Assembly (NCBI GenBank): GCA_027923505.1
Contig: BROI01000006.1
Location: forward strand, 930,001 to 994,000
Length of the DNA: 64,000 nucleotides
Source of the DNA: Mayamaea pseudoterrestris
Taxonomy: Eukaryota; Bacillariophyta; Bacillariophyceae; Sellaphorales; Sellaphoraceae
Reading direction: 5' to 3'
Positions 13,427 through 47,033 of the stretch are shown piece after piece (position 1 is the stretch's first letter; each line of letters starts with the position of its first letter). A program made the position numbers and the translations under genes. The notes under the pieces are model-generated. The model did no database searches. It saw only the letters and a program-made list of their open reading frames with translations, and was not told the DNA's origin.

Positions 13427-15568
13427 TCACTTAATACCTTGCGTCAACGCAGTATCCGCAATCGTCAGACCGTGATTATGCAGCTCTTGAATTTGCTCGT
13501 CTGTAATTCCAATCATGTGCGCCAAGTCTCGCATCGTTTCCGAGTTTGGGCGGCTCTTGTCGAATGAAACATTGCCTTCACCTCTCAAAGGCGATTGAAG
13601 TGCCATGCCAATGCCGTGTCCAACACCTTTGAAAATCTTGCTTGCCCGCCGAGCATTCTTGCGCGGGCTCACAATCGGCCCCATTGTGTGCTTCATGCCA
13701 TCGTACGCTCGACTCAAACCACCGCCGTCGCTCATGCGGCGAGACTGACGCCGAGGCTTTTCCGTGATTGGCGCTTCGTTTGTCATCTGGGCACACTCTG
13801 CCATGCTTGCATCATTACCAGCACTGGCACTCGCCCGACGGCGAAACAGGCGACGTTCAGAACCTGGTGAGACTTGAAACATTGAGCTCAACTTTGCGAC
13901 AGTCTTGGATCCCTTTGTCGACGCAGTGTTCATTGTTGTTTGTGATGCTCCAGAAGCTGGCGTCGAATAAAGACTTTGCTTGACCGACTTTGCCTCGGCT
14001 GGCAGCGTTTGCAACTGTGTGAAAGCTTTCCCGAGCGCATATTTGGGCAATTGTATGGTATCCAACTGAAATTCTTGCGATGGAAATCCGCCAACGGAAT
14101 GGCGCCGCTCAATTCCGCTAGTAGCTGTAGATTGTGTCTCAAATGCGTGTTCATCGGACATGTCCACCAATGCAGCTCCTGTGCTCGCCCTTCGGTGCCT
14201 CAATGGACCGTCGTGCTGATTTGCGGATGGTGGTGCCTGCACTGGCGAGTTGTCCGGCTTTGACGTGGTGGGTTGTTCGACAGGTTTCCGTGCTTTACTG
14301 GCAGCTGCTATCGTCTTCCCGGAAGTTTGTTTCACCGAAAATTTTCGCGCCGCACCATTGCTTGAAGTTCTATGCGGAGACAGAGAACGTCTCTTATTAG
14401 AGCTATCGTTACTGGAATCTCTGGACCGATTCATGCTGCTGCTGCGCCCTTGCTCGGGTTGTGACTCGAGGCGAATAGCCAAATTACTTTTCAGATCACC
14501 GGCGGACACTAATCGCTCTTTCTTCGATCCTGGGGACGAAGATGAAGGTCGTGGTGACGACGAAGCTGGATGACGGTGGTGGTGTCTCTGTGATCCATCG
14601 TGCTTGAGGACTGAGGAAGTGGTCGCCTGTTTTGATTTACGGAGAATGCCAGGCTTGGCCTTACCCGGTTGATCCGACGACAATGGCAATTTGTCCAATG
14701 TTTGTTTTGTATGCTTGACCCGTTGCTCCTGCGTCTCTAGGGTGGCTGGACTGCTTGCAGCAGTGGCGTTGCTGGATACAACCTGGACATGTTTCCGTCG
14801 CTCCGTAATCACCGGTAAGTGAGACAACGACTTTGCTCTCTTTCTAATAGACTGTACTTGCATATTTCGTTGACGATGCGGCGAAATTTTCGTGGTGTGC
14901 CGCCGAGGATGGCACGCATTGGTTTCGTTAGCTATCGTCTCGAGAGATTGGGATGTGAAAATGTTTTCCGTCGTTGCAATTGGTTCGACGGTAGCCTTCT
15001 TCCAATCTAGTTCCGAAAACTTTTTTAACTCGTCAGCGCATTCTACTTCATTAGGTTCCTCTTGCGTAACTCCATCCTCCAATCTATACTGAAACTCGGA
15101 GCTTGAGCCTTGGTTCGCGAAGGCAGGTGCCGACTGGATGGATCTGATTGACGTATGCAAATTCTCGAGTCTGCTTCCATTCAGTATGGCTAGCTCAATC
15201 CGATCAATTTCTGATTGAATCATTCCCAGCTTCAGTTCATTGTCTTGACAAAATGCTTCGGATAGAATCGAGCGCATCTCCTGCTCAGAAGCGCTGTTGT
15301 CAAACTTGCTGCTGAATCTCTGGTGGTAGGTGAGTGTACTTGCATTCGATTCATCTTTATGCTCGTTCGTTTCTTTTCGTCTCGATGGACTTGACTTTCG
15401 GGTATGCCTCGGAGTGGAGCCGTTGCGATGGGAAGGAGGGCTTCGCCGCCTTGGCGATCGAGCGACGGATGGGTCTTGTTGTTTCACGATCGTCGTCATT
15501 TTGAGTGAGTTGCTGGAAGATAATCTAGTCGCAGGCCATTTAGACTCGTCACTTTGGATGTAACTCAT
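13427..15568 (-). CDS. P1: disordered Ser/Arg-rich protein with shared C-terminal motif (713 aa)
   Basis: No known domain. The body is rich in Ser, Arg, Lys and Gln and is predicted to be disordered. Near the N-terminus are SR-like patches (RSPRRRSPPSHR, RKSSPSRRK). RSIQSAPAF, a recurring R-x-x-S-A-P type motif, lies near residue 150. FSELDWKK near residue 190 resembles the acidic-Trp motif of P2 and P3. Further R-x-x-S sites are RRHSVGGF and RRASTGAA. The last 35 residues carry the family motif: MIGITDEQIQELHNHGLTIAD. The start is the ATG at 15568; a TTG directly before it was not used. Related genes at 30693, 35352, 38096 and 45624 share only the C-terminus and short motifs. Function unknown; the many potential phospho-sites suggest a phosphorylation-controlled scaffold, which is inference. 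Confidence 0.8.
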   Translation of the reverse strand: MSYIQSDESKWPATRLSSSNSLKMTTIVKQQDPSVARSPRRRSPPSHRNGSTPRHTRKSSPSRRKETNEHKDESNASTLTYHQRFSSKFDNSASEQEMRSILSEAFCQDNELKLGMIQSEIDRIELAILNGSRLENLHTSIRSIQSAPAFANQGSSSEFQYRLEDGVTQEEPNEVECADELKKFSELDWKKATVEPIATTENIFTSQSLETIANETNACHPRRHTTKISPHRQRNMQVQSIRKRAKSLSHLPVITERRKHVQVVSSNATAASSPATLETQEQRVKHTKQTLDKLPLSSDQPGKAKPGILRKSKQATTSSVLKHDGSQRHHHRHPASSSPRPSSSSPGSKKERLVSAGDLKSNLAIRLESQPEQGRSSSMNRSRDSSNDSSNKRRSLSPHRTSSNGAARKFSVKQTSGKTIAAASKARKPVEQPTTSKPDNSPVQAPPSANQHDGPLRHRRASTGAALVDMSDEHAFETQSTATSGIERRHSVGGFPSQEFQLDTIQLPKYALGKAFTQLQTLPAEAKSVKQSLYSTPASGASQTTMNTASTKGSKTVAKLSSMFQVSPGSERRLFRRRASASAGNDASMAECAQMTNEAPITEKPRRQSRRMSDGGGLSRAYDGMKHTMGPIVSPRKNARRASKIFKGVGHGIGMALQSPLRGEGNVSFDKSRPNSETMRDLAHMIGITDEQIQELHNHGLTIADTALTQGIK

Positions 15569-16135
15569 CAATCAGAAAGCGAGCGAGCTGAGTATGGAGC
15601 TGATGTGCATCAGCAGTTGTCCGCAAGCACCGAGAGTGACAGCTTTGATCGTGAGGTTACAGCGACATTCGTCGAGCGATTAGTGCTGGCCAAAGGTTTT
15701 GCAAGACCCAATTGTTCTACCGGCGATCGTGAAATGACTCCACAGAAGATGAATCGAGTACTGTTATGTCTATAGTAATGACTCCTCGATGCGTGTCGCG
15801 TCAATTCGGATTGTTCTCTTAGCTACCGTAGGAGTATGCATAATATCATATGATGCTTTACTCATCCCAATAGCAAGAGGTTGCTGGTCCCATAGGCGGG
15901 CAACTGTGCCGTCAAGAACCGTGATTGGCTAACTGTAAGGTAGATGGAGTTCTAAAGCATCGACTGTCATTACATTTGTTCTTGACAACTTGCCATGGCT
16001 ATAACAACAAGGAACAAAGAACAGAATGAACAACTAGAATAAACATCATTTACCGCAAAATGGCCTGCATGCATGTATGCATTAATAAACCCTATACTAT
16101 TTGTTTTTGCTCATGCATCAAAGTCTGCTTTGTCC
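15569..16135. other. Intergenic spacer between Ub-NiSOD 3' end and P1 5' end
   Basis: Holds the 3' UTR of the ubiquitin-NiSOD gene and the promoter of P1, both on the minus strand. A 73-codon plus-strand frame at 15554-15775 overlaps the P1 start and looks like chance. No repeat was seen. Confidence 0.4.
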
Positions 16136-17134
<999 letters not shown>

Positions 17135-17560
17135 GATGGAGTCTTGAGCGAAGAACGATGTATTATAGAGCAAGGCAAGGCTGTCGACGGTTCCTCTACA
17201 GTTGTTACGGTATGTCGGATGGTGCGAAGCCTCGCAAGGATCCTCGTGGAACGAGTTGCGCGCGTGTCGAAGATCGCGGCTGAACCCTAACTTATCGAGA
17301 TGACTACGAAATTGGATAGCGACATACTTTATCGCGCGTTAGCTATCTCATATTTACTTTAATTTACAGCTCACATGCATCTTATAACACATTTTGCGGG
17401 TCAGGGAGGTGGTAGGATCAAGGGTTTTACAATGCCTGCAATGACTTTTGCGCGCTTCGTGCGCACAAACATTGCCGAACAGCAGATCCAGTATACTAAA
17501 TGAAAATTGACTACCAGTGGCCCAGGTAGAAGATGTCGCAGAAGCACCAATCATTTATGA
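17135..17560. promoter_or_regulatory. Upstream region of Ub-NiSOD
   Basis: About 425 bp between the Ub-NiSOD start and satellite C. It should hold the promoter. No specific element was recognised. Confidence 0.35.
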
Positions 17561-23656: not shown

Positions 23657-24036
23657 TTAATGAGAAAGAATTGTGTGGCGAATTCTCGGGCACGAAAACT
23701 TCAACGGTCGAAACGGTGTCGTTGGAATGACGTCGCCTGGCGTTGAACGCGAGGTGCGACGCGCGGTGCACGCACCGCGCACCGTAACGGGTGTGTCGCG
23801 CACCGAATAATTTCAAAACGCACGCGCGACAAGACTTAAGCTAAGTACACTCGTGGCGAATAAATGACTCAACTGCTACCGTTGAATCATGCCAAACTGC
23901 GCGTTGACACATGTGCACATTCGTTACACTCACAAATTTGCTGATCGTCTCGACAGATCGATCGTGTCAACGAAGCCGCACGCGCCATACCAAGAAATTA
24001 CCCTATACTACCATATAAGCCCAAGACACTTCTAAA

Positions 24037-25506
24037 ATGGCCCAAGTCATGAACAACGAACTCATTAACTACTTGCTACCGTTAGGCTTTACTGTGGACC
24101 AGATGTTTGCGATTGGTCGTCAAGGAGTTCTCTCGTTCGAGGGACTCAAGATCTTCGATGACAAGGCTATCGATTCGGTCGCAGCTGGATGCAAGAACCC
24201 TGGAGGAACTTCTGTGAATGCCGCTGGGGCCACGATACGTGATCCTGGAGTGTTGCTTCCGGTTCCATTTATCCTGACGCTGAAGGCGCTCGCATATGGC
24301 TTACGTCATTGCGACAAGACACAAGTCGTCTTCAATCCGATCATTCACGGGGCGGCATGGCTTAACTCGCTCATGCACTTTAGAACGTTTATCATCAAGG
24401 CCTACACGGCTCCAACGGACAAGCCGGCGAAGATGACGAAGGTGACGCTTATCCGCGATTCATTTGACGCGATCATCTTGTACTTGTCAACTTTGCGCGG
24501 CGTTGGCGAAACGTTTCTTGCATACGTCGTTCGCGACGAGTATGACCCTGAACCGGAACCAATCGGAGGTTGGTTGTCGTTGGACAAGGAGATGATTGCT
24601 AGAGCACCACTGCAAGGACCATTGTATGAGGCCGACAATCAATCTGTCTATCTGATCTTGAAGAGTGTGTTTGGTGGAACCGACGCTTACTCTTGGATGA
24701 TGGCTCATGAACGGGCTGGCGACGGTCGCGGAGCTTATCGCAGCGTCTACGATCATTACATGTCGATATCCAGTCGTTCGGCCACAAGACAGAAAGCGGA
24801 AGCGACGATTCGTTCGCTTGTCTACAGTAACGAAAACAAAATGACGTTTGAGCAGTACGTGTCGAAACTCCAGCTTGCGCATACTGACCTTGAAAGAGAG
24901 GGACATCCGATGAGTGATGACGACAGAGTCTTACATCTCAACACTGGGATTTTGAGCGACGTGTTGTCGGCGGCGAAGCACAGCCACACTTTGGATGAAG
25001 CAAGAGAGCCGGATGACCGTACTTTGGACACTTTTGATAAAGTTGTCAGCTTTTACCAGTCCATTATCTCCAAGCACCTGGCGAGTTCTGCAACTGCAGC
25101 GAAGCGTCGCAACGTTTCGTGGGCAGGAACTACGCATGAAGGCGGAGGCCGCGGAGGCGGTGGGCGCGGCGGACGTGGAGGCCGAGGCGGACGTGGCGGA
25201 AGAGGCCGCGGCGCCGGCAGAAACGTGCCAGCAGCCGAATGGAATAAGCTCAGCCATGAGCAGAAGGCCAAGGTCATTAGTGATCGCAAGAAGAAGCAGA
25301 AGACTGGCAATGGTAGTGGTGGTGGCGGTGCTGGCGGAACTCAAGGAGCAGGCAGCTACAATTCCCAAATTGCTGCGCTCAACTCCTCGATGCTCCAAGT
25401 CCAGCAGCAGCTTGCGGAGCGTGCTGAAGGGACGGATGAAGCGCCTCCTGCGGGAGGCGGCGGCAGTGGTACGCAGCTTGGCGCAGCCATGGGCGGACGC
25501 CGTTGA
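24037..25506 (+). CDS. gag: Gag-like protein of the Ty1/copia element
   Basis: A 489-aa capsid-type frame. Residues 1-370 are mostly helical with the features of copia Gag (a central region around YLILKSVFGGTDAY, and FEQYVSKLQLAH near residue 275). No CCHC zinc knuckle is seen; instead residues about 370-400 are an RGG-type stretch (GGRGGRGGRGGRGRG) that could bind nucleic acid. A Gly-rich tail follows. It lies just upstream of pol in the same reading direction. Confidence 0.8.
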   Translation: MAQVMNNELINYLLPLGFTVDQMFAIGRQGVLSFEGLKIFDDKAIDSVAAGCKNPGGTSVNAAGATIRDPGVLLPVPFILTLKALAYGLRHCDKTQVVFNPIIHGAAWLNSLMHFRTFIIKAYTAPTDKPAKMTKVTLIRDSFDAIILYLSTLRGVGETFLAYVVRDEYDPEPEPIGGWLSLDKEMIARAPLQGPLYEADNQSVYLILKSVFGGTDAYSWMMAHERAGDGRGAYRSVYDHYMSISSRSATRQKAEATIRSLVYSNENKMTFEQYVSKLQLAHTDLEREGHPMSDDDRVLHLNTGILSDVLSAAKHSHTLDEAREPDDRTLDTFDKVVSFYQSIISKHLASSATAAKRRNVSWAGTTHEGGGRGGGGRGGRGGRGGRGGRGRGAGRNVPAAEWNKLSHEQKAKVISDRKKKQKTGNGSGGGGAGGTQGAGSYNSQIAALNSSMLQVQQQLAERAEGTDEAPPAGGGGSGTQLGAAMGGRR

Positions 25507-25587
25507 CTCATTGGGGTCGACAATTGTAACGAGGAGGGAAGTCAAGAGCCGGGGGACAAGGACAATAAGGAAGTAAGAGAGCAAAGC

Positions 25588-30692: not shown

Positions 30693-33149
30693 ATGATGGT
30701 GTTGGAACATCAGCCCGTCAATAACAACAAAAAGCTGACGGACTTTTTCACGCTGGACAATATACAGAGCAAGAGAACTGCCCTCGACTGTCGATCGCTG
30801 CCCGCCCTGTCGCTCGGCAAGAGTACCGACAGCTCCTTGAAGGATCCGAACAATCGCAAAGAGTCATTGTCAGCAGCAAGACGAACCAAAGGATCATCCT
30901 CCAAGCAGCAGCAGCGACGAACTCCAGCTAGCACTCAAACAGTTCGAGGCAAGTTCAACGCCTCCATGCCAAACATGACCTTCAATATGGATGACGAGAG
31001 TGATTCTGAATTTTCTGATATTGAATGGACCGACGGCAAGCAGCAAAACTCCAAGACTAAAAAGAAGAATGCCCAGTCATCACCAAAGCGAGAAACAGAC
31101 AAGTCATTAAAGAGTTTGCTCGAACGAAAGGAACTAAAGGCAGCCATGAGTAGAAACGCAATCAGTGATGATGACTGCATCATCAAGGCGCAGCAGCGCC
31201 AGCAACGACGAGTCAGTTCCATGTCCGTGGCGAAGAGCTTAATGAGCGCTTCCTCGGACGATTCTTCCACCTTTGATGCGAATGGCATGAAGAAGAAACG
31301 AGTATTAAAGGTTCGAGCGAGCGACGTTTCCAAGTTGCCTGGTCGGCTGCGCGATACTCTTGCCTCTAAATCACCATCAGCTGTAGTAGACGCCGACGAC
31401 GCCTCCTGCGCCTTCTCCGTCGTGAGCAAAAACAGTATTGGTGCGCTGGCGCCAAGCCGCAAGGATTCCGATCGCTCGCGAAGCATGAGTCGACGACAAA
31501 CCATGGAGCAAGCATTGGCGCCGCCAGCACCTCCAGTGCGAGGCGTGTTGCGACAACGCAGCATGGATGGCGGGCCATTGATGCTCATGAACCCCCGACA
31601 AAAACCAGTTGGGTTGAATGGAGTGGCAGCGCGTCGCCAGCAAAGTATGAGCGTAGTGCCGTCCAATTCCTCCAGCTTGCGCGGACGCAGCGTCGAACGC
31701 TACGCTCCTCCTACAACGAATACAAGTTTCGTCGCACCAAGTGGTCGGGTGCGATCAATGTCACGCGTCAAGCGGCCCGCCAGAAGTGGCAGTTTCTCAG
31801 AAGACGAGCCTTCCGTCAAGCCTCTTTCTCCGAGCAAGCATTCAAACCTGTTCATGTCCAATGTTTTGACGGATCGACTCTGGGCATCGGCTGACAATTT
31901 AAATTTCGTGCCAGATTCGTTTGAAGCGCAGGGAGAAAGCCCGCGCCGGGGCGTTCGACGTAGCCAGTCGGACGATGCCATGATGCACTCCGCGACGCCC
32001 CGGCGTGGTTTGCGGCGGAGCCGCAGCATTGACCCGCGTGCCGGCGCTGCGGAGCAAGTGGCGGCAAAAACTAATGCTGCCAAGGTGGCTTGCAAGCCAA
32101 CAAAACCACCCGCTTCGTCTTCGCGACGATCTAAAAGCGTTGATTGCCGGCAACCTGACGTTGCTGCAGGACGTCCTGCTCTCAGCAGCAGCTCAGCAAT
32201 GAATTCTCCTTCTGCCAAGACGGATGTTGCTCCGTCGAAACCGCGGAGCAAATCAACCAGCCGCAAAGCTCGTCCAGAGGAGTTAAAACCAGATGAGCCG
32301 AGCAGTCCTCGTCGCAAAAGCCGTCCTGATGCTAGTTGGAGAATTAGTGAAACGAAGGATGATGAAACGAATGCAAAGAGCAATGAGACTGCTCGTAGTC
32401 GCAGTCGAGTGCGAAGGCCCACTCGTGGGGATGGCCAAGTTGAAAGCAGCGCTAATGATGCAGCGAAGGTACGGAGCAAGAGTAAAAGCACTCGGTCGTC
32501 CAAGGAAGACATTGTGGAGCGAAAACAATCATCTCGACCGACAGGCGAAGAAAAAGGATTGCGTTCAAGCAGGTCGAAAAGCCGACCGCAAAGTAGTCGC
32601 AGCAAGTCAGTGGCACGAGACAAGAGCCGAGACAGTCGATCCGTTACCAATAGGCAAACTTCCCTTACGAGTTCGAGTCCTCGCGACGAACAACAATGCC
32701 TGAATACGCCGGCGCCTACAACTGACGGCAAGTCAAGTAGTAGATCCAAGTCTGTCGCTCGACCAAGCAGCAAGTTTAACAAGGAGTCCAACGCTTCTCC
32801 GACGCCATCGATAACATCCAACCCAGTCGGCGCCATACTTAAGACGCTTGCGGATGTTCCTGCTCTGGATATCAGTCCGCGCAAACGCTTGACACGACTC
32901 CTTGGCAAGCACCATGCCTCGTCACCAAAAAAATCTAGCGAGGGCAACTCGTTAACGTCTGGTAGTTCCTTGTCCAAAATATCACGAACCGACTCGCAGG
33001 CCACTTCCAGCACGTCGGCATCCACCTACGAGCCAACCGAACTTACTCCAGGCGCCATGTCGCGCATCAAAGATCTTGGTATCACGCCCGAGCAGTTGGC
33101 GCTTTTGAATAATATGGGATTGAAGATTGCCGAGCGACCGTCGAACTGA
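30693..33149 (+). CDS. P2: disordered Ser/Arg-rich protein with shared C-terminal motif (818 aa)
   Basis: ATG at 30693, 818 aa, single exon. Short motifs in order: acidic-Trp motif DSEFSDIEWTDG near residue 110; basic motif VLKVRASDVSKLPGRL near residue 207, which parallels P3 and P4; many Arg-x-x-Ser repeats (RRGVRRSQSDD, RRGLRRSRSID, SSRRSKSVD, RSKSVARDKS, SRSKSVARPS). The middle resembles SR/RS domains but the repeat is looser. The C-terminus is MSRIKDLGITPEQLALLNNMGLKIAE, the family motif. There is no signal peptide or membrane segment. AATAAA lies at 33258, about 110 bp past the stop. Function unknown; a phospho-regulated scaffold or cytoskeleton/nuclear factor is guesswork. Confidence 0.85.
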   Translation: MMVLEHQPVNNNKKLTDFFTLDNIQSKRTALDCRSLPALSLGKSTDSSLKDPNNRKESLSAARRTKGSSSKQQQRRTPASTQTVRGKFNASMPNMTFNMDDESDSEFSDIEWTDGKQQNSKTKKKNAQSSPKRETDKSLKSLLERKELKAAMSRNAISDDDCIIKAQQRQQRRVSSMSVAKSLMSASSDDSSTFDANGMKKKRVLKVRASDVSKLPGRLRDTLASKSPSAVVDADDASCAFSVVSKNSIGALAPSRKDSDRSRSMSRRQTMEQALAPPAPPVRGVLRQRSMDGGPLMLMNPRQKPVGLNGVAARRQQSMSVVPSNSSSLRGRSVERYAPPTTNTSFVAPSGRVRSMSRVKRPARSGSFSEDEPSVKPLSPSKHSNLFMSNVLTDRLWASADNLNFVPDSFEAQGESPRRGVRRSQSDDAMMHSATPRRGLRRSRSIDPRAGAAEQVAAKTNAAKVACKPTKPPASSSRRSKSVDCRQPDVAAGRPALSSSSAMNSPSAKTDVAPSKPRSKSTSRKARPEELKPDEPSSPRRKSRPDASWRISETKDDETNAKSNETARSRSRVRRPTRGDGQVESSANDAAKVRSKSKSTRSSKEDIVERKQSSRPTGEEKGLRSSRSKSRPQSSRSKSVARDKSRDSRSVTNRQTSLTSSSPRDEQQCLNTPAPTTDGKSSSRSKSVARPSSKFNKESNASPTPSITSNPVGAILKTLADVPALDISPRKRLTRLLGKHHASSPKKSSEGNSLTSGSSLSKISRTDSQATSSTSASTYEPTELTPGAMSRIKDLGITPEQLALLNNMGLKIAERPSN

Positions 33150-35351: not shown

Positions 35352-38054
35352 ATGACTACTACGTCATTGAGCAATCAACTGAATGCTGCGGCGCGAGAAC
35401 AAGAGGAAGAAGAAAATTGCAGTATTCAACGATCACTGCACTGTCGGCAAAGCCATGGATTGAACCAGATTGCTACATCTCCAAATCAAAAGGATGAGAG
35501 CCGCCAAAAGCTTCCAGCTAGTGGTGGAATCTCCATGGAAAGCAGCAGCAACAATGGGCACTTCGCCGTCAGTACGGCGCCATTGACGCCACCTCTATAT
35601 GAATCGCACTCTTCCCTTCAGAGTCAGACGGAGGAAAATGCATTTCTGGAGGAGCTGAATGACTCATTGACGCTTGACCAAATATGGCATTCCGACTTGC
35701 TTGATCAAGCTGCGGCTACTGCAAATGGGACGGCAAATGCTACTGGAAATGCTCAAAGTAAAATTGCTGGAGACGAGGCCAATATACCTGCCACTCCAGT
35801 TGCAACGACGAAACCAAAACGCAGAAAGCAACGCATGACTGAGCGACTCGATAAGCGTTCGCAGTCGGCTCCTCAACTCGGCAGTGACGACGATGAAGAA
35901 AGCTTTGATTTTAGCGAGGTGGAGTGGAAGGATCATGACGTTGCGGCAAAGTCGGCGCTGCTGGGCAACAAGCTTGAAATGATTTCAAAGTATGCGGCTG
36001 GCGACATGTGCGGAATGACGAGTCATAGATCGCCGACGACGCCGCCGTCATTGAATTCAAAACGATTGTCGAATCAGCTGCGTGCTCGTGCACGCCGACA
36101 ACACACCAAGACGTTGTACTCGTCTGACTCGGATTTAAGAAGACGACACCAAGGTGGAGACGATGAGAAACTTGACAAAAGTCCCCCGTCGGCTCGACCA
36201 AAGATGGAAACGAATCGCAAAAAGATCAAGCTCCGCGCATGCGACTTGGGGCTGACTTCTTTGAAGAACATGGGTCCAGCGGCTTTGCAGGAGGCCATTG
36301 CCAAGTGGAAGGATGAAAGTGGGCACGTTGGTGTCGTCAAGAGCATTAAAGTGCAAAAAGTCAAGGACGACGTGGCTGATAGCGCTGCAGCGGAGCAGCA
36401 AAGGCGGCGCGCACTGGAGGAGAAGCTTTGGTCGTCCGGTTTGGAAAAGGTTCCATCGGACGAGCGGTCTCGTGCGCGCAGTATCAGCAGCGAAAAGACT
36501 GTCAAGCGCAGCAACAGCGCCACTCGGTCGAATGCGCGGAGGAGCCTACTGGACAAGTTAAATGGGAAGACATTAAAAAGCAACCAAAAGCGAAACGCAA
36601 TGTCGCCCTATGGTGCCTTGACCAAGGCTGGCCTGCGGTCAGTTGGGTCGCTCGATGATTCATTACACGGTCGGCAACTTGCGTCGGAAATGCAATTAAA
36701 ACGACCGGAGCGATCTGCCAGCGAAGATTTAGTCAAGTCGGCTGGCGAAATAGTAAGCGAAATTGACCAGAAAAGCAAGTCTTTGCTGGCATCGCCGAGA
36801 CGAACATCAACGAGTGACCCTGTGAAGCAAGTTGGACCGGCGGTCTTGTATTCACCGCAGCTGATTGTTGCTCCATTTGAAGGTGGTGACGGAGCAATTT
36901 CTTCAGTCACTTGTTCCAAAAAAGGCATGAAGATTCGGCGGATAAAAGATCCGCCAGCGATACCGCCATCGCCTGTTGGTGCTTCATTGAAATTACAACT
37001 GCCCAAGCAGCTCCCGCTTGCAGTGACGGATGAGTGGAATGATTCCCAACGACAACGAGCAAAGTCAATGACAGAATCGAAGCTTAAACAAGCTGTGGAA
37101 AGGACACCAATTGCCAACACCAAGGCACGTCTGCGTTCGAAGTCAACAGGAAGACATGAGAAACAGCCTTATAAAGTGACTAGCGTGAGCACTGCTACTT
37201 CTGGTCGCAAGGTCAAGGACGACGTGAACCAGGAAATTGAGGAATTGACACCTCGAAGGAGGAGTACCTCAAATTCGCGGTTGGCTGCTAGTTCGAAAGA
37301 TGGCGATGCGAGACGAGGCCGTAGCGTAAATGGTGACGGTATTCAGTCTAGCGACAATAAACCAAAACGTTCCGTCTCCGCTGGGCGAAAGCAAGCGGGA
37401 AGCACATTGTCTGAAAAACGAGATGGATCTGTTCAGCTGATGCCAAAGAAGCCATCGACAAGAGATGCTGATGAAACAAGGGGAAGATGCGAAACTTCGT
37501 CAAAGATGTTACGATCTCGCGGTAGATCGGCTGGACCTGCGCCGCGAGCAAGCCAAGAACCTAACACTTTCCAGAAAAACGAGAAAAAGCGAAGCAAGAG
37601 TGTTGTTACCTTTAACAAAATGGATATGGAGGATCGAATAACTGCCAAAGCTAACAAAGAAGTGCTAGGAAATCGGCCCCCAACGCGCCAAGCGGCACAC
37701 TTCCGGTCTGATGTAGGAGATTTGCTACGAAGTCCGTTTAGAGCCGTCAAGGGTGCTATACGCAGAGTGACAACAAAAGGTAAAATCAATTCCGACAACG
37801 ATGCACCTGAGTTACCCGTAGCAGTTCGCATCGATCAAGCGCCGCCAAGTAAAGTGCCGCAGTGTATGGATGATTCTAATTCTACAGACCCTGCCAGCGG
37901 AGCCAGTATCTGTGAGCATCGTCGGTGGTCAGACTTTTCACAGTATGGAGACGACGTGAAGGCGAAACTTGGGCGTGCTGGCGTTTCAGAAGATATGATT
38001 GAGTCCTTGCGGCGAATGGGGCTAATTATAACGGATATAGGTGGAGATGCGTAA
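35352..38054 (+). CDS. P3: disordered Ser/Lys-rich protein with shared C-terminal motif (900 aa)
   Basis: The ATG at 35352 gives 900 aa. Motifs in order: KRSQSAPQLGSDDDEE near residue 165 (the R/K-x-x-S-A-P motif); FDFSEVEWKDHD directly after it (acidic-Trp motif as in P2); KIKLRACDLGLTSLKNMG near residue 292 (parallel to KIKMKASDLGL of P4 in spirit and position); an Ala/Lys helix (ALQEAIAKWKDE). Many R-x-x-S sites lie between residues 350 and 780. The end is KAKLGRAGVSEDMIESLRRMGLIITD, the family motif. P3 is convergent with P4 with only 41 bp between their stop codons. No known domain, signal or membrane segment. Confidence 0.86.
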   Translation: MTTTSLSNQLNAAAREQEEEENCSIQRSLHCRQSHGLNQIATSPNQKDESRQKLPASGGISMESSSNNGHFAVSTAPLTPPLYESHSSLQSQTEENAFLEELNDSLTLDQIWHSDLLDQAAATANGTANATGNAQSKIAGDEANIPATPVATTKPKRRKQRMTERLDKRSQSAPQLGSDDDEESFDFSEVEWKDHDVAAKSALLGNKLEMISKYAAGDMCGMTSHRSPTTPPSLNSKRLSNQLRARARRQHTKTLYSSDSDLRRRHQGGDDEKLDKSPPSARPKMETNRKKIKLRACDLGLTSLKNMGPAALQEAIAKWKDESGHVGVVKSIKVQKVKDDVADSAAAEQQRRRALEEKLWSSGLEKVPSDERSRARSISSEKTVKRSNSATRSNARRSLLDKLNGKTLKSNQKRNAMSPYGALTKAGLRSVGSLDDSLHGRQLASEMQLKRPERSASEDLVKSAGEIVSEIDQKSKSLLASPRRTSTSDPVKQVGPAVLYSPQLIVAPFEGGDGAISSVTCSKKGMKIRRIKDPPAIPPSPVGASLKLQLPKQLPLAVTDEWNDSQRQRAKSMTESKLKQAVERTPIANTKARLRSKSTGRHEKQPYKVTSVSTATSGRKVKDDVNQEIEELTPRRRSTSNSRLAASSKDGDARRGRSVNGDGIQSSDNKPKRSVSAGRKQAGSTLSEKRDGSVQLMPKKPSTRDADETRGRCETSSKMLRSRGRSAGPAPRASQEPNTFQKNEKKRSKSVVTFNKMDMEDRITAKANKEVLGNRPPTRQAAHFRSDVGDLLRSPFRAVKGAIRRVTTKGKINSDNDAPELPVAVRIDQAPPSKVPQCMDDSNSTDPASGASICEHRRWSDFSQYGDDVKAKLGRAGVSEDMIESLRRMGLIITDIGGDA

Positions 38055-38095
38055 ATGCAAGTGATGAAATTATTGTAACCATGGTTTGCAAACTA

Positions 38096-41000
38096 TTAAG
38101 ACTCTGTTATCTTAAGTCCGAGCTTATGCAGCCGCGTAAGTTGATCTTCCGTGATTCCTGCTAGTGCAACTTTCCTGAACATGGGGTCCTCTGTTATTTC
38201 ACTGACAGTTCTTTCGGGAACATGGCGGTAGTCTTCGTAAAGCGGAATCATGAGCTCTTTTACACCGACGCGGTAAGTCTTGGTTCGTGTTTTTGCTTCC
38301 GGTGGACGGGCCACTGGGGTCGAAAGGGAATCAGATGTACTTCCAAGATTTGTAGATGATTCATGTTGATTATCAGTCTTGCTGGGTGTTACCATTGCTG
38401 CTTTCGCTGATGTACTTTCAAAATGACGCATGAGACGAGGCAAATCTTTTATGGGCGACAAATTTGTAACTTCAGCCGTAAGATCCATGTGTGAACCTGA
38501 GATATCATGAGAGCAAGATCCACGCGACAATTGCAGCCCTCCTCTATCATCTTTTGCATAGTTGGAGCTTGTTGTCGACTTTCTCATGCGCGATCCGACA
38601 AAATCATAGGAGAAGTCACTCGAAGATCCGGTATGACCATCGTCTTGGACTTTGCTTTCTGAATGCGGCGGTGGACTACTTGTCGTGGTGCCATTGCTAT
38701 GATCCACTTGGGATGTTCTCTTGTCTATACTGCGTCTACTTTTTGATCTTGACTTGCGAACACTTTTGACACTCGTCTCCATTCCTTCTTGATAGCCATT
38801 GTTCTGTTTGTCGGGTGATCGAATTTTATCCTTCTCTATACCACGAGGAGGATCCAGCGTATTGTCCTTGCGGCCGCCGTTGCTTGAATCACTTCTGCCC
38901 GAACTCTTCGACATATTCGCCGAAGGATTCAACTGTTTGCCAGGATTCAAAGATCGGTTCCCGGTGCTCCTCCCTCTACTCTTTTTAACTTCCGTAGAGT
39001 TGCCCTCAAAAAAGACGGATGCCTCTTTCATCTCGGCTCTGTTCTGATGCGCGGTCCACTTCTTCCATGCATGTTGTACGATCGCAGGATTCATTTCGGT
39101 GGAAGATAACCCCAGGTCGCTCGCTTTCATCTTGATCCGCTTAGCTTTTGGCTTTTTTCCCGATGACTCATGCGCAGCAGCTTTTTTAGACATGGGATCA
39201 ATATCGGCACTGCAAACAGACTTTTGACGGCGAAGCCGGTTTGGTATCAGGGAGTTGTCCACCAGCATAGGTTGTAGTTCCGCAGGACAAAGGGTTTGTC
39301 GCCGGCTTCCAGTGGGCAATCGAACGATAGTTTTCGTCTTGGACGTCGATAGTGTCATTTCATCATTGAGCAAACCAGGTGCGCTCTTTGACCTAGCCAT
39401 GCTATTTCGACGATCAGCTTTCCATGAAGGCGACGAGTCCACTTTGCCTTCGACGCGGCTGCATCTTAAGTTTAAGGTCGAACTATGCATAACAAGTGTC
39501 CCTGGCTCAGGAACGTATCTCAGCGGATTTAAAGAAACCGAAGTTGTTGATGGAAATTCTTTATCAGCATTCATTTCGATAGAGGCAGCGCAATCCGTGA
39601 GTAAAGCAGCCAACGAGGAGGGATCCTCATTAACCTTTGCTCGCAAGAGAACCGACGACGGAGGCAAAGTGGGTGTCATATCCTGGACGAGTGAATTGAT
39701 GTCTGATGCCAAGGTTGTCATGCCGCCCGGTGAATTGAATACCGAAAGCTTATATTGGCTTTGCGCATCGTGTAATTTCCTTGGTAGGATGCGCATGTTA
39801 CGCGGTTGCCCAATGGACTCGTTTAAATCTGCTTTCTTGTCAGGAAACTCCTTGTCTTGTCTTATATCTGCCGTCTGTGCTTTACGGACTGCTGGAGAGG
39901 GATCAATTGCAGGCTGGCTTATCCTGTCGTCACTGGTCAACAACTGCGATTGAGCAAAGCCTTGACGAACATATCCTGCTTTTAAAAGCATTTGTATCCC
40001 TTGGCCCTGCTCACTTTTATTGCTCTTATTCTTTTGAACATGCAAATTGTTTGCAAGGCTTATGCTTTCGACCTCATTTTGCTCCTGGAATGTCAGTTTC
40101 GTAGGGACTGAGTGTTGCTTCCTCAGACCACGTTCCGTCCGGCGCATATTCCTGCTTCCACTGAGCGAAGCCGCCACGGACTGTTGCTTCCGCCTACGAA
40201 CTTTCTTGTCCGGTGAAGTCATAAGCTGCGACGTTGATGCGCTCAAATACGGCAATTCACCGAAAGATTTAGTGTTATTATTAACATTTTTTGCTGTCAT
40301 GCTACGCTTCTCCGCTTGCGCAGGCGTCCATAGAATCTCCGCAGCTTGAGCCGCATCTCCTTTGTTCGCCTCCGAAGCCATTCCATCTGCTGGGGCCCAG
40401 TCAATATCAGTCGATTCCTCATGTTGCGTGCTGACGGCATCACTACGTGGCGCAGCGACATTATCTTTAACCTGAGTCCGCCGACATGTTGTATAGGAAT
40501 CGGTAGTCGCTGCTGGCAATTTTGTGTCAGGATCACTATTTCGTTCTTCCAAATGCCGCAAGGCCAGCGAAGCCTCAGACCCGGGCGAGAAAACCATACC
40601 ATACAAACTCTCGTACAGCGCAGCATGGGATTGCTCATCATCCCCTGTCGGAGAAGCCTCCTGTAGCAGGTCACACAATGGAACCGGTGGCAGATTGAGC
40701 GACGACACCGTAGATTTCTCTTGATAGGTTGATGGCGTCAAAATCCCAAGCGTTGCCGTCGTAGCGCTTGTAGCGTCAACCATTGAAGCATACGTGTGAA
40801 GGGAGTGTAACTGTAGCTCGGAAGATTCCCCATCACTCATGGAGGCAAATGTATGCTGCGACAGTTTCAACATTGATGCCGGTGACCAGACAATGTCAGA
40901 AGCGGATACATCGGCAAATGTTTGCGCGTCATTTGCCGCTGTTGCCGCCGCCGCTGCCTCATGCTTCGCACCAACCTTCTGAAAATACGAATGCAAAGGT

Positions 41001-42300
41001 TGCGTTTGCGACTGCAATGTTGAAAAGGACTGGCGTTTCCTTGCATAGTTGCTTGCTCCATGCTGCATGTTGGGCACTGACATCTGCTTGGCCATTCGCT
41101 TTGACTTGGCTGGCTTGCTGTCGGTAGCCGAGGCTTGTCGAAACGATCTACGAGCACCTTCTTTGACAGGAATAGAACTATGTTGCATGGAATCTCTTCT
41201 CTCCGGCAAGTGTGGAGCTGATTGCTGCTTTTTCATGGATTCGCGTAACAATGCGCGTCCCTTGGTTGGAATAGACGTAGGCGTTGAAAAAGGTAACGAG
41301 ACTCGAGACCCTGTCGACGACTTATAGCTCGCCGCCTTGTTTGTAGCAATCGTTGTAGTCCCAGCAATATCTCTCTTGGATGCATCTTTAAAAGAACGAT
41401 CACAAGCGATCTGGATATTCGTTCGAGCTTCACCTTTGCCAATTCTATTTGCTGCGGCACTCAACGACCCTCGCCGCAGTGGCGCCTTCAATGAAAGGCA
41501 CGAGGAAGAATTCCTTCCTGTTACAGCAAACAGGTCTCGCTGGCTCAAGGAAATATGCTGCGCCGACGAGAGGACCACCTGTGGGCGCTCGCAGACGCTA
41601 TCAAGCTCACTGACGGTTGTTTCGTCCAAATCAATCATAATGTTTGGTCCGCAACTCAGCTGAGTACTGGAGGCTGTATTGTGCGAGGATGGTTCCTTTC
41701 GTTCGCATTTGTAGTCTAGAATGGGTGTTGATCCATACAGGTGAAGCATCTTTGGCAAAGATTCGTCATCAACTTCGGCTGCAGCTGATTCGAGTTCAAC
41801 CCCCGCCATGCTTGCTTCTTCGATAATCTCGTCTATTTCTGCTTCCAACCGCCGAGTCGATTTAGGCTGTATACATTCGTCAAGTGAAGGACTAACAACC
41901 GAAAGAACCTGGTCCGTTTCAGTTGGAGCAGTATCTTGCTGCGGCTGAGGATTCATGGTCAAGGCGCGACGTAAGTTGGTGCGGCTTAGAATGCTGCCCA
42001 GTCGCCATTTCTTGGGCGATTGGGTGCTGTCGGCAGGCGAGTGCATCAAGTCGCTTTGGCTATTTGACATCCACCAATCCATAATTTCGTTTCTTTCCGC
42101 TATTTGCAAAAGGGCTATGTCGTCAATGCAGCTTGCTGATCGGATTTGTTGTACGAGTAGCTTCAAGGAGGGATCGGACTGGCTGAGCTCTGTTTAAAAG
42201 CTTTATGAGAGCATGCACTATCCAATCATATTTTTGTTCCCAAATAGGTTGTAGCTGTTAGTTGCTGCGTTGGTCCCTTTTTACTGGTAGACCAAGCCAT
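38096..42300 (-). CDS. P4: largest disordered family member, two exons (1369 aa)
   Basis: The long frame opens 5' without an ATG until residue 29. A 16-nt first exon at 42300-42285 (ATG GCT TGG TCT ACC A) joined over a 95-nt intron (GTAAAA...AAACAG, 42284-42190) to 42189-38096 gives MAWSTKLSQSDPSLKLLVQQ, so it is preferred over the internal ATG at 42082. The product is 1369 aa. Three D-I-x-W-x-P-A motifs occur (SDIVWSPAS, TDIDWAPAD, AEILWTPAQ). S-A-P/S-V-P motifs recur: KKQSAPHLP, KQMSVPNMQ, RKQHSVPTK, ARSKSAPGL. RIKMKASDLGLSS near residue 1070 parallels P3. The C-terminus FRKVALAGITEDQLTRLHKLGLKITES carries the family motif. No known domain. Confidence 0.85.
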
Positions 42301-43338: not shown

Positions 43339-44847
43339 CTACTCACTCACCTCTTGGATGCTCACCAACTCTGCTGCCAGCCCCTCATGTATAAGACTTC
43401 CAAGCGCCGCTGCCGCTGCAACTGCTGCTCCGTCGATATCGCAAGGTTTTTCTTCGTCATTCTCAAGTGCCTGAATAAAGTACATGACTTCCTTATCGTC
43501 GCCTGGCATTGCGTTTGCGATTGGCGGAGACTTGGCAATTGAATGACAATCATTATGCACTGGTAAGCCTTCCTCTTCCTGGCCAAACATGACCGTAGAG
43601 TCACTCGCGAAAGTGAAAGAATTAAGCATCTCATTGTGCGCGTCTTGATCATTAGCAGCATACACATCAGGATCATCATTCGCCTTCTTCTCCTCCCCAC
43701 TTTCGATCTCATCGACAGTAAGATTTGCCGCTGCTACTGCACCCGTAATCAACGCAGATTGCGATCCATTTGCATTTTTCAAAGATGTTTCTAGTTCATG
43801 GCGAGCGTACAGAAAGCTCTTGAAGGCTTGTTCAAGATGGAGCTGCGTTGCAATCAAGTATTTATTCGAACTTGAGTGTGCGAGTTGGCACTGGTGAAAA
43901 TTTGCCGAAAGCTTGTTAATGCTTATATTCAACGTATCAATCTCAGTGTCTTTAAGCTCCAAGACTTCTCGTAGCGCATGAACATGTTGCTGCGACTGTT
44001 GTAGATCACTTTGCGTTTGTTCAAACTTGTGCTCGAGCTCTCGATTCTTCACCTTCCATGTTTCTTCTACCAGATGAAAGGCGTTAATGATTGTCTCCTG
44101 CTCGGATAACTGCGACGTCAAGTTCAATATTGTTCCAGTCAATTTGTCAGCTTCTCCTCGTAAAACGCTGTGTCGCTCATGTTCCACTCTGATATCGTCG
44201 TCATGTTGCTTCCGCATCGCCTCGAGCTCATTGGCATGCTCCTGCTCGACTTGCTCTAACTCGTTTTGATGTGTCAAACGGACCGCCTGATATGTTTCGG
44301 TTGCCCGCGTCAAGCTCTCCAGCACAATCTTTTGATCGTCATACTCCAAAAGCTCCGTTTCATGCAACACATCCAGAGGAGTCCGTCCCGATTGATCCGC
44401 CGCTTGTAAGGCGGAAACATTGGCGGCAATGAGTAGATTCACAACTTCCGGAGCCGCTCCACACTCCACGGCCAGATGCAGCGGCAAGGATCCAAACTGC
44501 GTCGGCTTGGATGCACTCTCGGAAAAGACGCTCAACAAGTGACTCACGAGCCAGGCTGGTGCCTGCCGTCGACAAGCTTCGTGAATGGGGAGTCGTTGCC
44601 AGACGCTCCAGACAAAGGTTGTTCCAATCGTGCCAGTGCTCTTGATCCACGTTCGGACTTGGCGAGGCGACTCCTTGGCAATGGAGAAGGCAAGCTTCCA
44701 ATTGCTTTCCTCAATCGCGGCGAATAGAGGACTTCCGCTGTTTTCGTGGTAGAATGCGAATTGTTCCAAGACAATTTCTTCGGTGCCGTCGTCATTTTCT
44801 TTGTCGTCACCATTGCGATTGTCGTTCGCTTGTCGAATGGATTCCAT
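43339..44847 (-). CDS. Ankyrin-repeat and coiled-coil protein (502 aa)
   Basis: ATG at 44847, 502 aa. Residues about 35-165 hold degenerate ankyrin repeats: SPLFAAIEESNWKLAFSIAK, RLPIHEACRRQAPAWLVSHLL, SLPLHLAVECGAAPEVVNLLI and a final SGRTPLDVL. Residues about 185-350 form a long coiled coil (NELEQVEQEHANELEAMRKQ and onward). The last 120 residues are acidic and low in complexity. Such ankyrin plus coiled-coil proteins form a large family in diatoms with unknown roles, presumably in protein binding. It stands between P4 and P5. Nothing suggests an enzyme. Confidence 0.85.
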   Translation of the reverse strand: MESIRQANDNRNGDDKENDDGTEEIVLEQFAFYHENSGSPLFAAIEESNWKLAFSIAKESPRQVRTWIKSTGTIGTTFVWSVWQRLPIHEACRRQAPAWLVSHLLSVFSESASKPTQFGSLPLHLAVECGAAPEVVNLLIAANVSALQAADQSGRTPLDVLHETELLEYDDQKIVLESLTRATETYQAVRLTHQNELEQVEQEHANELEAMRKQHDDDIRVEHERHSVLRGEADKLTGTILNLTSQLSEQETIINAFHLVEETWKVKNRELEHKFEQTQSDLQQSQQHVHALREVLELKDTEIDTLNISINKLSANFHQCQLAHSSSNKYLIATQLHLEQAFKSFLYARHELETSLKNANGSQSALITGAVAAANLTVDEIESGEEKKANDDPDVYAANDQDAHNEMLNSFTFASDSTVMFGQEEEGLPVHNDCHSIAKSPPIANAMPGDDKEVMYFIQALENDEEKPCDIDGAAVAAAAALGSLIHEGLAAELVSIQEVSE

Positions 44848-45623
44848 TATCTAAAACGCTAATGTATAGCTGCAGCTACTTTCAACAATAAGATGTACCG
44901 TAGGAGCGAATCGTCGTTTGCGATGTTAGACACGGATGATGTTGTATGCGTTGATGCGGCGGCGCCACACGGAATCATCGAAACTCATAATCCTTGACGC
45001 CATTCACCACGCGGACGTAACACGACGGAAACTTGTAATGTTCGCTCCTCCATGCCAAGCGTGTCGGAGACGTTTCGAAAAAGGTGCTTGGTGGAACGCG
45101 TGATGAACGTTGCCGTCACGCTTCGATGAGAGAAAATAATGTGAGCGCCAAACGGCTCATGCGTTCCAACCGCCACAGCCACTTTGCTCTCAAGCGATCG
45201 AAAATTACGGTCGGTTTTCTCGTTCAGCTTAAAAACAATCCAGATTGCTTTGACCAAATTTAATTTAATAATAGATGATGGTCAGCTTTCTTTTAGGAGC
45301 AGCAATCGAATGCATGGTGGTTGTTTCAAGACGCTATTGCGAGCAAGCCTGGACGTTCGACGAAGCCTGGACATTCGACGAAGCCTAGATAAAACAGCTG
45401 GTCATTTTTAAAACGTCAATGACGTTGTGGCAAGACTCGCGGAGTGTGACGATGGGTTGCAGTTTCGCACAATGGCCATGAACAAAACGGACTGGACCGG
45501 ACTGCTTGACATTGAAATCATACCCTCAGATACCGTCGTAAAAGCCAAGTAAGCCGATAGATCCATCACACTCAGTACGCTACATCTGTAAAGCCCGTCA
45601 GTACAAACGACCCTTTTTCTATC
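44848..45623. other. Intergenic spacer between ankyrin gene and P5
   Basis: 776 bp between divergent genes. A minus-strand frame at 44985-45257 is open for 90 codons but begins with TTG, and an overlapping frame ends in WRSEHYKF...DYEFR. Either could be a remnant or an unseen exon, but no join with GT/AG and phase was found. A direct repeat of about 18 bp (CGACGAAGCCTGGACATT) lies at 45358-45390. Confidence 0.35.
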
Positions 45624-47033
45624 ATGACGAGCAGCAGCAGCCAGAAGGAATTCACCTTTCCAGTCGCCAGCACCAAGAATAGCCTTCGCGTCGTGCGACC
45701 GACGCGCAACCTTGGCGAGGCGCTCAAGGCAACGGCAAGCAGCAGCAAGAGCCGCAGCGGATCAGGAACCACGGCAAGCATGTCCGTCTCGTCGCGCAGT
45801 GAAATGTCGAGTGCTTCCAAAAAGTATACGCTGGCGCCGACGCGAAACAGTAGTAACAGCAATCATCATGGCAGCAACTCATCGCTATCCAATGCAAATA
45901 CTGCCATGCAGCGACGAAAGGAGCGACGGCAGCAGTCGGCATCGTCTGGAAAACCCATCGAGGCGCTCCCCGGCGGATCGTTTCACGCGTCCTTTCACTA
46001 TCAATCTACTTCAGAGCCTGACGACGATGACGACGACGCCTTTGAGAATCAAGACGAATGGTGGGATGAACAACATCATGGAACATCTTCAGACTTTGCA
46101 GCTGCAACGAATGAACGTAGAAATTCAATTCAGGTTCGAAAGACCAAGGTGCATCCAGAGGAATTTGGTGCCAACAATAACAAAAGTACAGCTAGCTCTT
46201 TGTTGAACGCTCGCCACAAGGAATCATTAGCAGCTGCACCAAAAGCGTCATCGAGTCGAAGACTAGATCAGGCACTGGCGAGTCAAAAGCCGCTGGCTGC
46301 GACTCCAGGCGACTGCTGCAAGTCGGTGCAAAGCAGCATGAGCTCGCGCGGCCGCAAACTCGAAAGCAGCGGCAGCAGGGCTCCAACCTCGCGCAGCGTG
46401 TCACGGAGTGGGCGCTCGAGTCTTGCCGTTCCAACGTCCAGTCTACTGGGAACATCATCCGTCGTCGAGTCGCCAGCGAAAGCATCATCGACACGTACTA
46501 GCGTAACTCGATCTTCGCGGCCCCGCGGCAAGAGTGTGGAAGCGCCGCGCGTCAATACGTTGCTGAGTCATGGGCGACCGCAGCGAAAAACTGGAGCTAC
46601 AAGTAGCGCGGGATCGGTCGTATCCGCGCCGGCGCAAATGAATGGACGGGTCAAGGTTGGTCGAGTGGCGCGGCCGAGTGGCAATGCAAGTAGTAGTACA
46701 AGTGCAGCCAACACGAGTGGCACGACTACTTCATCATCGTCATCAGCTGCGAATCGATATGGGTTCCCATCCTGTTTCTCTGGCAATGGCAGCTGTCGAA
46801 ATCTGGAAGCCTCCACGCATACAGTTTCCTTTGATCCATTTGCAGTGTCAGAGCACGAGCAGCGCCAACACCAAAAGGAACGCACGGCGCAACTTCCGCT
46901 GCAAGTTCAACGCAAGGGCAAGTATAGTGACAAGGAAAAAATGCTTCGCAAAATTAAAGAAATTGGAATATCAGAACACATGCTACAGAATATGAAGCAG
47001 GCTGGTTTGGTCATTACGGAAACGAAACGATGA
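45624..47033 (+). CDS. P5: smallest disordered family member (469 aa)
   Basis: ATG at 45624, 469 aa, single exon. The body is very rich in Ser, Arg, Ala and Thr (runs such as ASSKSRSGSGT, SVSRSGRSSLA). An acidic-Trp stretch FENQDEWWDEQHH lies near residue 140. RRQQSASSGKP resembles the R-x-x-S motif of its relatives, and RKTKVHPEEFG near residue 172 may be a weak form of the basic-DLG motif. The C-terminus is KMLRKIKEIGISEHMLQNMKQAGLVITETKR, the family motif. No known domain, signal or membrane helix. Satellite D starts about 110 bp downstream. Confidence 0.83.
   Translation: MTSSSSQKEFTFPVASTKNSLRVVRPTRNLGEALKATASSSKSRSGSGTTASMSVSSRSEMSSASKKYTLAPTRNSSNSNHHGSNSSLSNANTAMQRRKERRQQSASSGKPIEALPGGSFHASFHYQSTSEPDDDDDDAFENQDEWWDEQHHGTSSDFAAATNERRNSIQVRKTKVHPEEFGANNNKSTASSLLNARHKESLAAAPKASSSRRLDQALASQKPLAATPGDCCKSVQSSMSSRGRKLESSGSRAPTSRSVSRSGRSSLAVPTSSLLGTSSVVESPAKASSTRTSVTRSSRPRGKSVEAPRVNTLLSHGRPQRKTGATSSAGSVVSAPAQMNGRVKVGRVARPSGNASSSTSAANTSGTTTSSSSSAANRYGFPSCFSGNGSCRNLEASTHTVSFDPFAVSEHEQRQHQKERTAQLPLQVQRKGKYSDKEKMLRKIKEIGISEHMLQNMKQAGLVITETKR

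What the first reader, a model, noticed from the sequence alone, without database searches (positions are those of the whole stretch)
13427..47033. Five clustered, disordered Ser/Arg-rich proteins that share one C-terminal motif
Seen: P1 (13427), P2 (30693), P3 (35352), P4 (38096) and P5 (45624) differ in length (469-1369 aa) and body sequence, yet all end in G[IV][TS]xxx[IL]xx[LM]xxxGLxI[AT][DE], within 1-14 residues of the stop. Few things keep a C-terminal stretch of 30 residues while the rest drifts freely, so it is likely a binding or targeting module, probably two short helices. I recognise no family with this layout. Clustering in 34 kb points to local duplication.
Basis: seen in the sequence. 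Interest (0 to 1): 0.85.

Follow-up and report, generated by a model that had tools for sequence, protein, structure and literature searches.

The report
Clustered diatom proteins sharing C-terminal hairpin
A gene cluster in a diatom encodes long, floppy proteins that look very different from one another but end in the same tiny hook, predicted to be two short helices and probably a docking module for a partner that has yet to be found.

Summary
The motif G[IV][TS]xxx[IL]xx[LM]xxxGLxI[AT][DE] occurs five times in six frames of the window, each 1-8 residues before the stop of a long frame. The genome is that of the diatom Mayamaea pseudoterrestris. A tail profile finds six more copies leftwards, all C-terminal: eleven in C6:859150-977033 and no other in the 324 kb of C6 read. 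Ten of eleven are recovered when held out; P6 is not. Probable orthologues exist for P5 (two) and P7 (one). Among P5 orthologues the tail is 75-83% identical, the body 34-51%. AlphaFold2 models P5 as disordered except two C-terminal helices. Some members share an internal basic motif; bodies are enriched in R-x-x-S but not K-x-x-S, though not in P4 or P5. The tails scanned match no Pfam family or solved fold convincingly. Best reading: an undescribed, tandemly expanded family of non-secreted phospho-regulated scaffolds whose tail docks to a common partner. The family is well supported; the mechanism is inferred.

The parts
13427..15568 (-). P1, 713 aa, tailed Ser/Arg-rich protein
   Evidence: no Pfam match at E<=1; identical to database protein P0004
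13454..13510 (-). P1 C-terminal motif GITDEQIQELHNHGLTIAD, 8 aa before stop
   Evidence: held-out E 3.2e-5 with the four-tail model, 1.2e-7 with the ten-tail model
30693..33149 (+). P2, 818 aa, tailed Ser/Arg-rich protein
   Evidence: identical to database protein P0001
31014..31037 (+). P2 acidic I-x-W motif (SDIEWTDG)
   Evidence: modest statistics
31290..31376 (+). P2 basic internal motif B (KKKRVLKVRASDV...), limits approximate
   Evidence: profile match (P2 was in the model)
33078..33134 (+). P2 C-terminal motif, 4 aa before stop
   Evidence: held-out E 9.3e-4 with the four-tail model
35352..38054 (+). P3, 900 aa, tailed Ser/Arg-rich protein
   Evidence: identical to database protein P0006
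35913..35936 (+). P3 acidic V-x-W motif (SEVEWKDH)
36210..36305 (+). P3 motif B (NRKKIKLRACDLGLTSLKN...), limits approximate
   Evidence: P3 was in the model
37980..38036 (+). P3 C-terminal motif, 5 aa before stop
   Evidence: held-out E 1.8e-3 with the four-tail model
38096..42082 (-). P4, 1328 aa, tailed protein; convergent with P3, 41 bp between the two frames
39060..39154 (-). P4 motif B (KRIKMKASDLGLSST...), limits approximate
   Evidence: P4 was in the model
40328..40888 (-). P4 stretch with three I-x-W motifs (SDIVWSPA, TDIDWAPA, AEILWTPA); limits run from Trp codon to Trp codon
38102..38158 (-). P4 C-terminal motif, 1 aa before stop
   Evidence: held-out E 9.7e-7 with the four-tail model
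45624..47033 (+). P5, 469 aa, tailed protein with probable orthologues P0005 and P0008
   Evidence: AlphaFold2
46965..47021 (+). P5 C-terminal motif, 3 aa before stop; predicted helices at residues 437-447 and 451-459
   Evidence: held-out E 8.5e-7 with the four-tail model

Best explanation
The five genes belong to a family of at least eleven tail copies within about 118 kb of one contig of the diatom M. pseudoterrestris. Shown: each tail (P6 with less certainty) is a homologous stretch of about 30 residues at the extreme C-terminus. In P5, the one member modelled whole, it is the only part predicted to be ordered (two helices joined by Gly-Ile, ending Gly-Leu-x-Ile), and it is the best-conserved 30-residue stretch among the three P5 orthologues. 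Inferred: these are cytosolic or nuclear adaptors or scaffolds. The hairpin docks every member onto one shared partner, or onto each other, by its conserved hydrophobic face. The long basic disordered body carries R-x-x-S sites for an Arg-directed kinase (PKA-, CaMK- or CDPK-like) and short motifs (hydrophobic-x-Trp, basic motif B) for other partners, so that phosphorylation tunes what is assembled at the shared dock. The family grew by local duplication; the body diverged fast and the tail was held.
For: Family: five strict motifs, all at C-termini. Eleven tails at 37.7 domain bits or more against 7.5 for the best non-member among 6378 frames (all eleven are in that model). Ten of eleven recovered when held out. 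All eleven end 3-10 residues after the last Ile of the motif. Orthologues keep the tail: P0005 and P0008 for P5, P0007 for P7 (tail 74%, body 54%). P5 tail identity 33/40, 30/40, 33/40 against body 195/384, 118/343, 142/349; the best 30-column window of the P5 alignment is the tail, 24 of 30 columns identical in all three. Structure: P5 pLDDT block means 37-53 up to residue 430, then 65, 88, 90, 77; helices 437-447 and 451-459. In 14 aligned tails seven positions are hydrophobic (A, C, F, I, L, M or V) in 14 of 14 and two Gly and one Ile are invariant (near-copies and orthologues included). Regulation: R-x-x-S 121 observed, 79.2 expected (z 5.5); K-x-x-S 57 against 61.8 (z -0.7), eight proteins. 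Motif B in P2, P3, P4, P7. No signal-like N-terminus in P1-P7, P10, P11 (KD9 at most 0.59; M18 peptidase 2.71) and net charge +22 to +70. P10 and P11 differ at Ks 0.056.
Against: No partner, localisation or phosphorylation has been measured. The tail modelled alone is weaker (mean pLDDT 62.6, pTM 0.29, three helices), so it may fold only when bound or in context. R-x-x-S is not enriched in P4 (12 against 12.1) or P5 (6 against 8.0), and it is one of ten patterns tried. The Trp motif was defined after looking: 10 of 31 Trp have I/L/V at -2, p 0.009. P6 is not recovered when held out. P8 and P9 are known only from short tail frames, and P7's tail lies in another frame from its body. Ka/Ks of P10/P11 is 0.77, with four changes in the last 35 residues, so recent constraint there is weak. 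P5 orthologues also keep an N-terminal stretch, SQKEFTFPVAS, so the tail is not the only conserved element.
Confidence: 0.45

Rival explanations
1. The hairpin is a self-association module: members dimerise or form mixed bundles through their tails, making a phospho-regulated mesh or condensate rather than docking to a third protein.
For: Two short helices with seven all-hydrophobic positions leave little core of their own; the tail alone is modelled only weakly; eleven copies sit together.
Against: No dimer could be modelled here. The conserved Gly and end residues fit a fixed external groove equally well.
Confidence: 0.25
2. The tail is a C-terminal targeting or stability signal (organelle targeting or C-degron) read by a receptor; the bodies are functionally unrelated.
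For: Always close to the stop: 3-10 residues after the last Ile of the motif in eleven of eleven; bodies differ strongly.
Against: About 30 residues and two helices are long for a C-degron (recalled knowledge). P2, P3, P4 and P7 share an internal motif too, and six of the eight bodies counted have more R-x-x-S than expected.
Confidence: 0.15
3. Members are WASP-like actin regulators: the tail mimics the helical part of the WASP GTPase-binding domain and the acidic Trp motifs mimic the Arp2/3-binding acidic region.
For: The profile search of solved structures lists WASP (1cee) at E 1.4, aligned on profile positions 6-23; acidic Trp stretches such as DDDDDDAFENQDEWWDE in P5. The WASP features are recalled.
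Against: E 1.4 is not significant and eleven other chains score better; the longer profile does not list WASP. No ARPC4 match in the genome (without a positive control for that family). [quoted passage not shown]
Confidence: 0.03
4. Silica-forming or wall proteins (silaffin-like, Ser-rich, basic and phosphorylated).
For: Ser-rich, basic, disordered (in P5), in a diatom.
Against: No secretory N-terminus by hydropathy in P1-P7, P10 and P11: max KD9 near the N-terminus at most 0.59. P8 and P9 starts are unknown.
Confidence: 0.04
5. Chance or compositional convergence of low-complexity C-termini.
For: Bodies are low in complexity; P6 is not recovered when held out.
Against: Ten of eleven tails recovered when held out, best non-member E 0.63 or worse; probable orthologues keep the tail.
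Confidence: 0.01

Closest known systems
Kinesin-1 cargo adaptors with W-acidic motifs (SKIP/PLEKHM2, calsyntenin)
   Same: Disordered adaptors with a Trp flanked by acidic residues and a hydrophobic residue at W-2 (definition from PMC5450233 passages); P2 SDIEWTD, P3 SEVEWKD, P8 TGIDWSD
   Different: W-2 is usually I or V here rather than L/M; several members have Pro or a neutral residue in place of acids; no kinesin light chain was looked for in this genome; I know of no counterpart of the C-terminal hairpin
SR proteins (RS-domain splicing factors)
   Same: Ser/Arg-rich, basic
   Different: No RRM or other Pfam domain in P1-P5 or P6, P7; RS/SR dipeptides are not above composition, 158 against 160.9
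WASP GTPase-binding domain helices
   Same: Weak profile match over one helix and the Gly-Ile turn
   Different: E 1.4, no further WASP features found, no ARPC4 match in the genome
UBA-type helical domains
   Same: Helix, Gly-hydrophobic loop, second helix (recalled resemblance, no call)
   Different: No UBA match in Pfam scans of proteins or window tails; there is no room for the third UBA helix because the protein ends
Diatom ankyrin proteins of silica pore patterning (dAnk)
   Same: An ankyrin-repeat gene lies between P4 and P5 (window 43339-44850)
   Different: That protein has no tail; kinship to dAnk not tested; only search listings seen

Membership tests
C6 tailed family (defined here) | Hairpin motif at the very C-terminus | tested here: met
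   Five of five in the window; eleven of eleven tails end 3-10 residues after the last motif Ile
C6 tailed family (defined here) | Recovered by a profile that does not contain it | tested here: met
   Ten of eleven tails; P6 not recovered
C6 tailed family (defined here) | Internal basic motif B | tested here: inconclusive
   Found in P2, P3, P4, P7 and in two tail-less neighbours; P1, P5, P6, P10, P11 are not among the 16 best rows (the model held P2, P3, P4, P7, P0007 and one neighbour)
Kinesin-1 W-acidic adaptors | Trp flanked by D/E with L/M at W-2 | tested here: inconclusive
   Relaxed form in six of nine members against a shuffled mean of 1.3, maximum 6 in 2000 shuffles (pattern chosen after looking); 10 of 31 Trp with I/L/V at -2, p 0.009
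Kinesin-1 W-acidic adaptors | Binds the kinesin light chain TPR domain | not testable with these tools
   needs a binding assay
WASP-family nucleation factors | Significant similarity to the GTPase-binding domain | tested here: not met
   E 1.4; not listed with the longer profile
WASP-family nucleation factors | Arp2/3 complex present in the genome | tested here: inconclusive
   ARPC4 not found, but the control rang nowhere; the same kind of search found a 14-3-3 gene; other subunits not searched
SR proteins | RNA-recognition motif | tested here: not met
   No Pfam match at E<=1 for P1-P5, P6 and P7 body
SR proteins | RS dipeptides beyond composition | tested here: not met
   158 observed, 160.9 expected over eight proteins
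Silaffin-like secreted proteins | N-terminal signal peptide | tested here: not met
   Max KD9 0.59 or lower near the N-terminus of P1-P7, P10, P11; controls M18 peptidase 2.71, aconitase 1.22, TPT transporter 0.47 (a membrane protein without an N-terminal signal by this measure) (hydropathy only)
14-3-3 clients | R-S-x-S-x-P sites | tested here: inconclusive
   3 observed, 0.9 expected over eight proteins; one 14-3-3 match in the genome

The most novel reading that the evidence does not exclude
The tail is a previously undescribed, perhaps diatom-specific C-terminal docking domain that recruits a whole tandem array of rapidly evolving, kinase-regulated disordered adaptors to a single hub (for example a motor or cytoskeletal receptor that also reads the Trp motifs), so that one receptor serves a chromosomal 'library' of interchangeable adaptors.
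Probability: 0.2. Interest if true: 0.75.

Novelty: new variant of a known kind. Interest (0 to 1): 0.5.

Why it matters
Orphan disordered proteins are hard to annotate because so little in them is conserved. Here one short C-terminal element gives a handle on a whole family in an ecologically important group: it can serve as a profile, a bait and a deletion target. If one receptor reads all the tails, that would be a testable example of how a tandem array diversifies linkers while keeping the dock constant.
Full report
WHERE IT IS. The window is G000:C6:930001-994000 of a 30.6 Mb, 41-contig genome. Database protein P0003, identical to the P6 protein described below and carried on a contig of the same length as C6, is named as Mayamaea pseudoterrestris, a diatom of the order Sellaphorales. 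The gene neighbourhood fits: nitrate-reductase-type domains, a molybdenum-cofactor radical-SAM gene, an M18 peptidase, a reverse transcriptase of Ty1/copia type (RVT_2), a triose-phosphate-transporter-family gene and a bacterial-type aconitase.

OBSERVATION. The five frames are there. The strict motif has five matches in six frames, each 1-8 residues from a stop; G-x12-GL-x-I has only one more match. Models made from four tails find the fifth at E 8.5e-7 to 1.8e-3, with the best non-member at E 2 or worse. The motif is not chance.

THE CLUSTER IS LARGER. I read 304 kb of contiguous C6 (810001-1114000; and the window) and 20 kb more to the left. Frames of at least 30 aa were searched in the 304 kb (25 aa in the 20 kb), so a tail on a shorter last exon would be missed. 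A model of six tails (the five plus P6, found by eye) gave eleven matches and then a gap: the weakest had domain E 5.5e-4, the next frame 3.7. With all eleven in the model the gap is 37.7 against 7.5 bits. The extra places are P6 (910374-911690, minus, 438 aa frame), P7 (tail in 907863-908060, minus, beside a 570-aa frame), P8 (880341-880508, minus), P9 (861048-861173, minus), P10 (878515-880335, plus) and P11 (859150-861042, plus). All eleven end 3-10 residues after the last motif Ile. When each tail, or each pair of near-copies, is held out, ten of eleven come back (E 3.1e-3 to 4.9e-9; best non-member 0.63 or worse). P6, which carries a two-residue insertion, does not; its membership rests on position, composition and a Trp motif. 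The extra 20 kb holds no tail. The rest of the genome was searched only with protein queries, whose first look proved insensitive: joined tails found themselves and near-copies only, and a consensus set found P1 and P2 plus two false hits. Members on other contigs are therefore not excluded.

ORTHOLOGUES. P5 has probable orthologues P0005 (455 aa, tag ena) and P0008 (413 aa, tag lgn, E 2.6e-52), and P7 has P0007 (589 aa, tag ena). Their species are not given. P5 identities: tail (last 40 columns) 33/40, 30/40, 33/40; body 195/384, 118/343, 142/349. The best 30-column window of that alignment is the tail (24 of 30 identical in all three); an N-terminal stretch SQKEFTFPVAS is kept too. P7 against P0007: body 54%, tail 74%. 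No other named diatom protein appeared, but the two searches that found relatives scored only the about 8000 candidates sharing most words, so this is not evidence of absence; the first search, with the P2 tail, found P2 alone among 41 candidates.

STRUCTURE. Full-length P5 with eight aligned sequences: mean pLDDT 46.4, 398 of 469 residues under 50, last four blocks 65, 88, 90, 77, helices 437-447 and 451-459. The P4 tail alone with five sequences: mean pLDDT 62.6, helices 21-28, 31-38 and 43-51. In 14 aligned tails (eleven plus three relatives; hand alignment) two Gly and the Ile of GLxI are invariant, the position before helix 2 is Thr or Ser in 14 of 14, and seven positions are hydrophobic in 14 of 14. 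No solved structure or Pfam family matches convincingly. Other members were not modelled.

BODY. Over eight proteins (P1-P6, the P7 body and P10; P11 left out as a near-copy, P8 and P9 as incomplete) and ten patterns tried, R-x-x-S is 121 against 79.2 expected (z 5.5), R/K-R-x-S 32 against 12.7 and R-S-x-S 35 against 13.1, while K-x-x-S is 57 against 61.8, S/T-P 89 against 72.1 and RS/SR dipeptides 158 against 160.9. This fits sites for an Arg-directed kinase and not an SR splicing domain. P4 (12 against 12.1) and P5 (6 against 8.0) show no R-x-x-S excess. Motif B (a basic stretch, then A-S-D-L-G-L or similar) occurs in P2, P3, P4, P7 and in two tail-less neighbours, 877052-878212 and 857207-858937, which are 79% identical over 364 columns (only 857207 among these was outside the model). 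So tail and motif B are separable. A hydrophobic-x-Trp motif, often with acids, recurs, but its statistics are modest and post hoc. N-termini of P1-P7, P10 and P11 look non-secretory and their net charges are +22 to +70.

EVOLUTION. P10/P11 and P8/P9 sit in corresponding places about 19.3 kb apart, near a 9.9 kb duplication at 95% (862607-872433 and 882193-892052). P10 against P11: Ks 0.056, Ka 0.044, ratio 0.77 over 597 codons, four residue changes in the last 35. Three tail-to-tail convergent pairs occur: P3/P4 with 41 bp between frames, P10/P8 and P11/P9 with 5 bp (coordinates). P7's tail is in a different frame from its 570-aa body, where P0007 is continuous: a frame change, an assembly error or a tiny intron; not resolved.

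MECHANISM. Shown: homology of ten tails, C-terminal placement, conservation of the tail in P5 and P7, a predicted hairpin in P5, R-x-x-S excess in six of eight proteins. Inferred: docking of all tails to a common partner or to each other, with phosphorylation tuning other contacts. The kinesin W-acidic idea is a lead: the definition was read in passages of PMC5450233, and no kinesin light chain was looked for. The WASP idea is disfavoured: E 1.4, no ARPC4 match, without positive control, and the statement in PMC11420354 that many diatom species lack Arp2/3 (passage).

VERDICT. A real, tandemly expanded family with a C-terminal module that I could not find described in Pfam, solved structures or the papers searched. 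Function is inferred only.

Noticed in passing
window 1-1203 and L010 1-10000 (C6:920001-930000): A 169-bp tandem satellite of over 11 kb lies between P6 and P1; related repeats occur at C6:1041395-1048538.
   Followed up: partly
window 47230-52432: A 356-bp tandem array, 14.7 copies at 91% matches, directly downstream of P5.
   Followed up: no
window 52976-64000 (to C6:998145) and C6:1007711-1023120: A 15.5 kb segmental duplication at 94% identity carries most of the AAA helicase gene and the bacterial-type aconitase gene.
   Followed up: partly
window 24019-29769: Two adjacent long open frames of a Ty1/copia-like element: the second has RVT_2, the first has no Pfam match and is gag-like by eye only.
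   Followed up: no
window 43339-44850: Ankyrin-repeat protein with a weak coiled-coil (Filament) match between P4 and P5, without the tail.
   Followed up: no
L012 1980-3938 (C6:911980-913938): 652-aa Ser/Arg-rich frame divergent from P6, with an SLEWEGES Trp motif and an RSKSV stretch near its end but no tail and no Pfam match.
   Followed up: partly
C6:877052-878212 and C6:857207-858937: Two tail-less proteins, 79% identical over 364 columns, that carry motif B next to P10 and P11.
   Followed up: partly
window 2202-5276: Nitrate-reductase-type gene split by an in-frame stop between the molybdopterin and dimerisation parts; by eye most simply a short intron.
   Followed up: no
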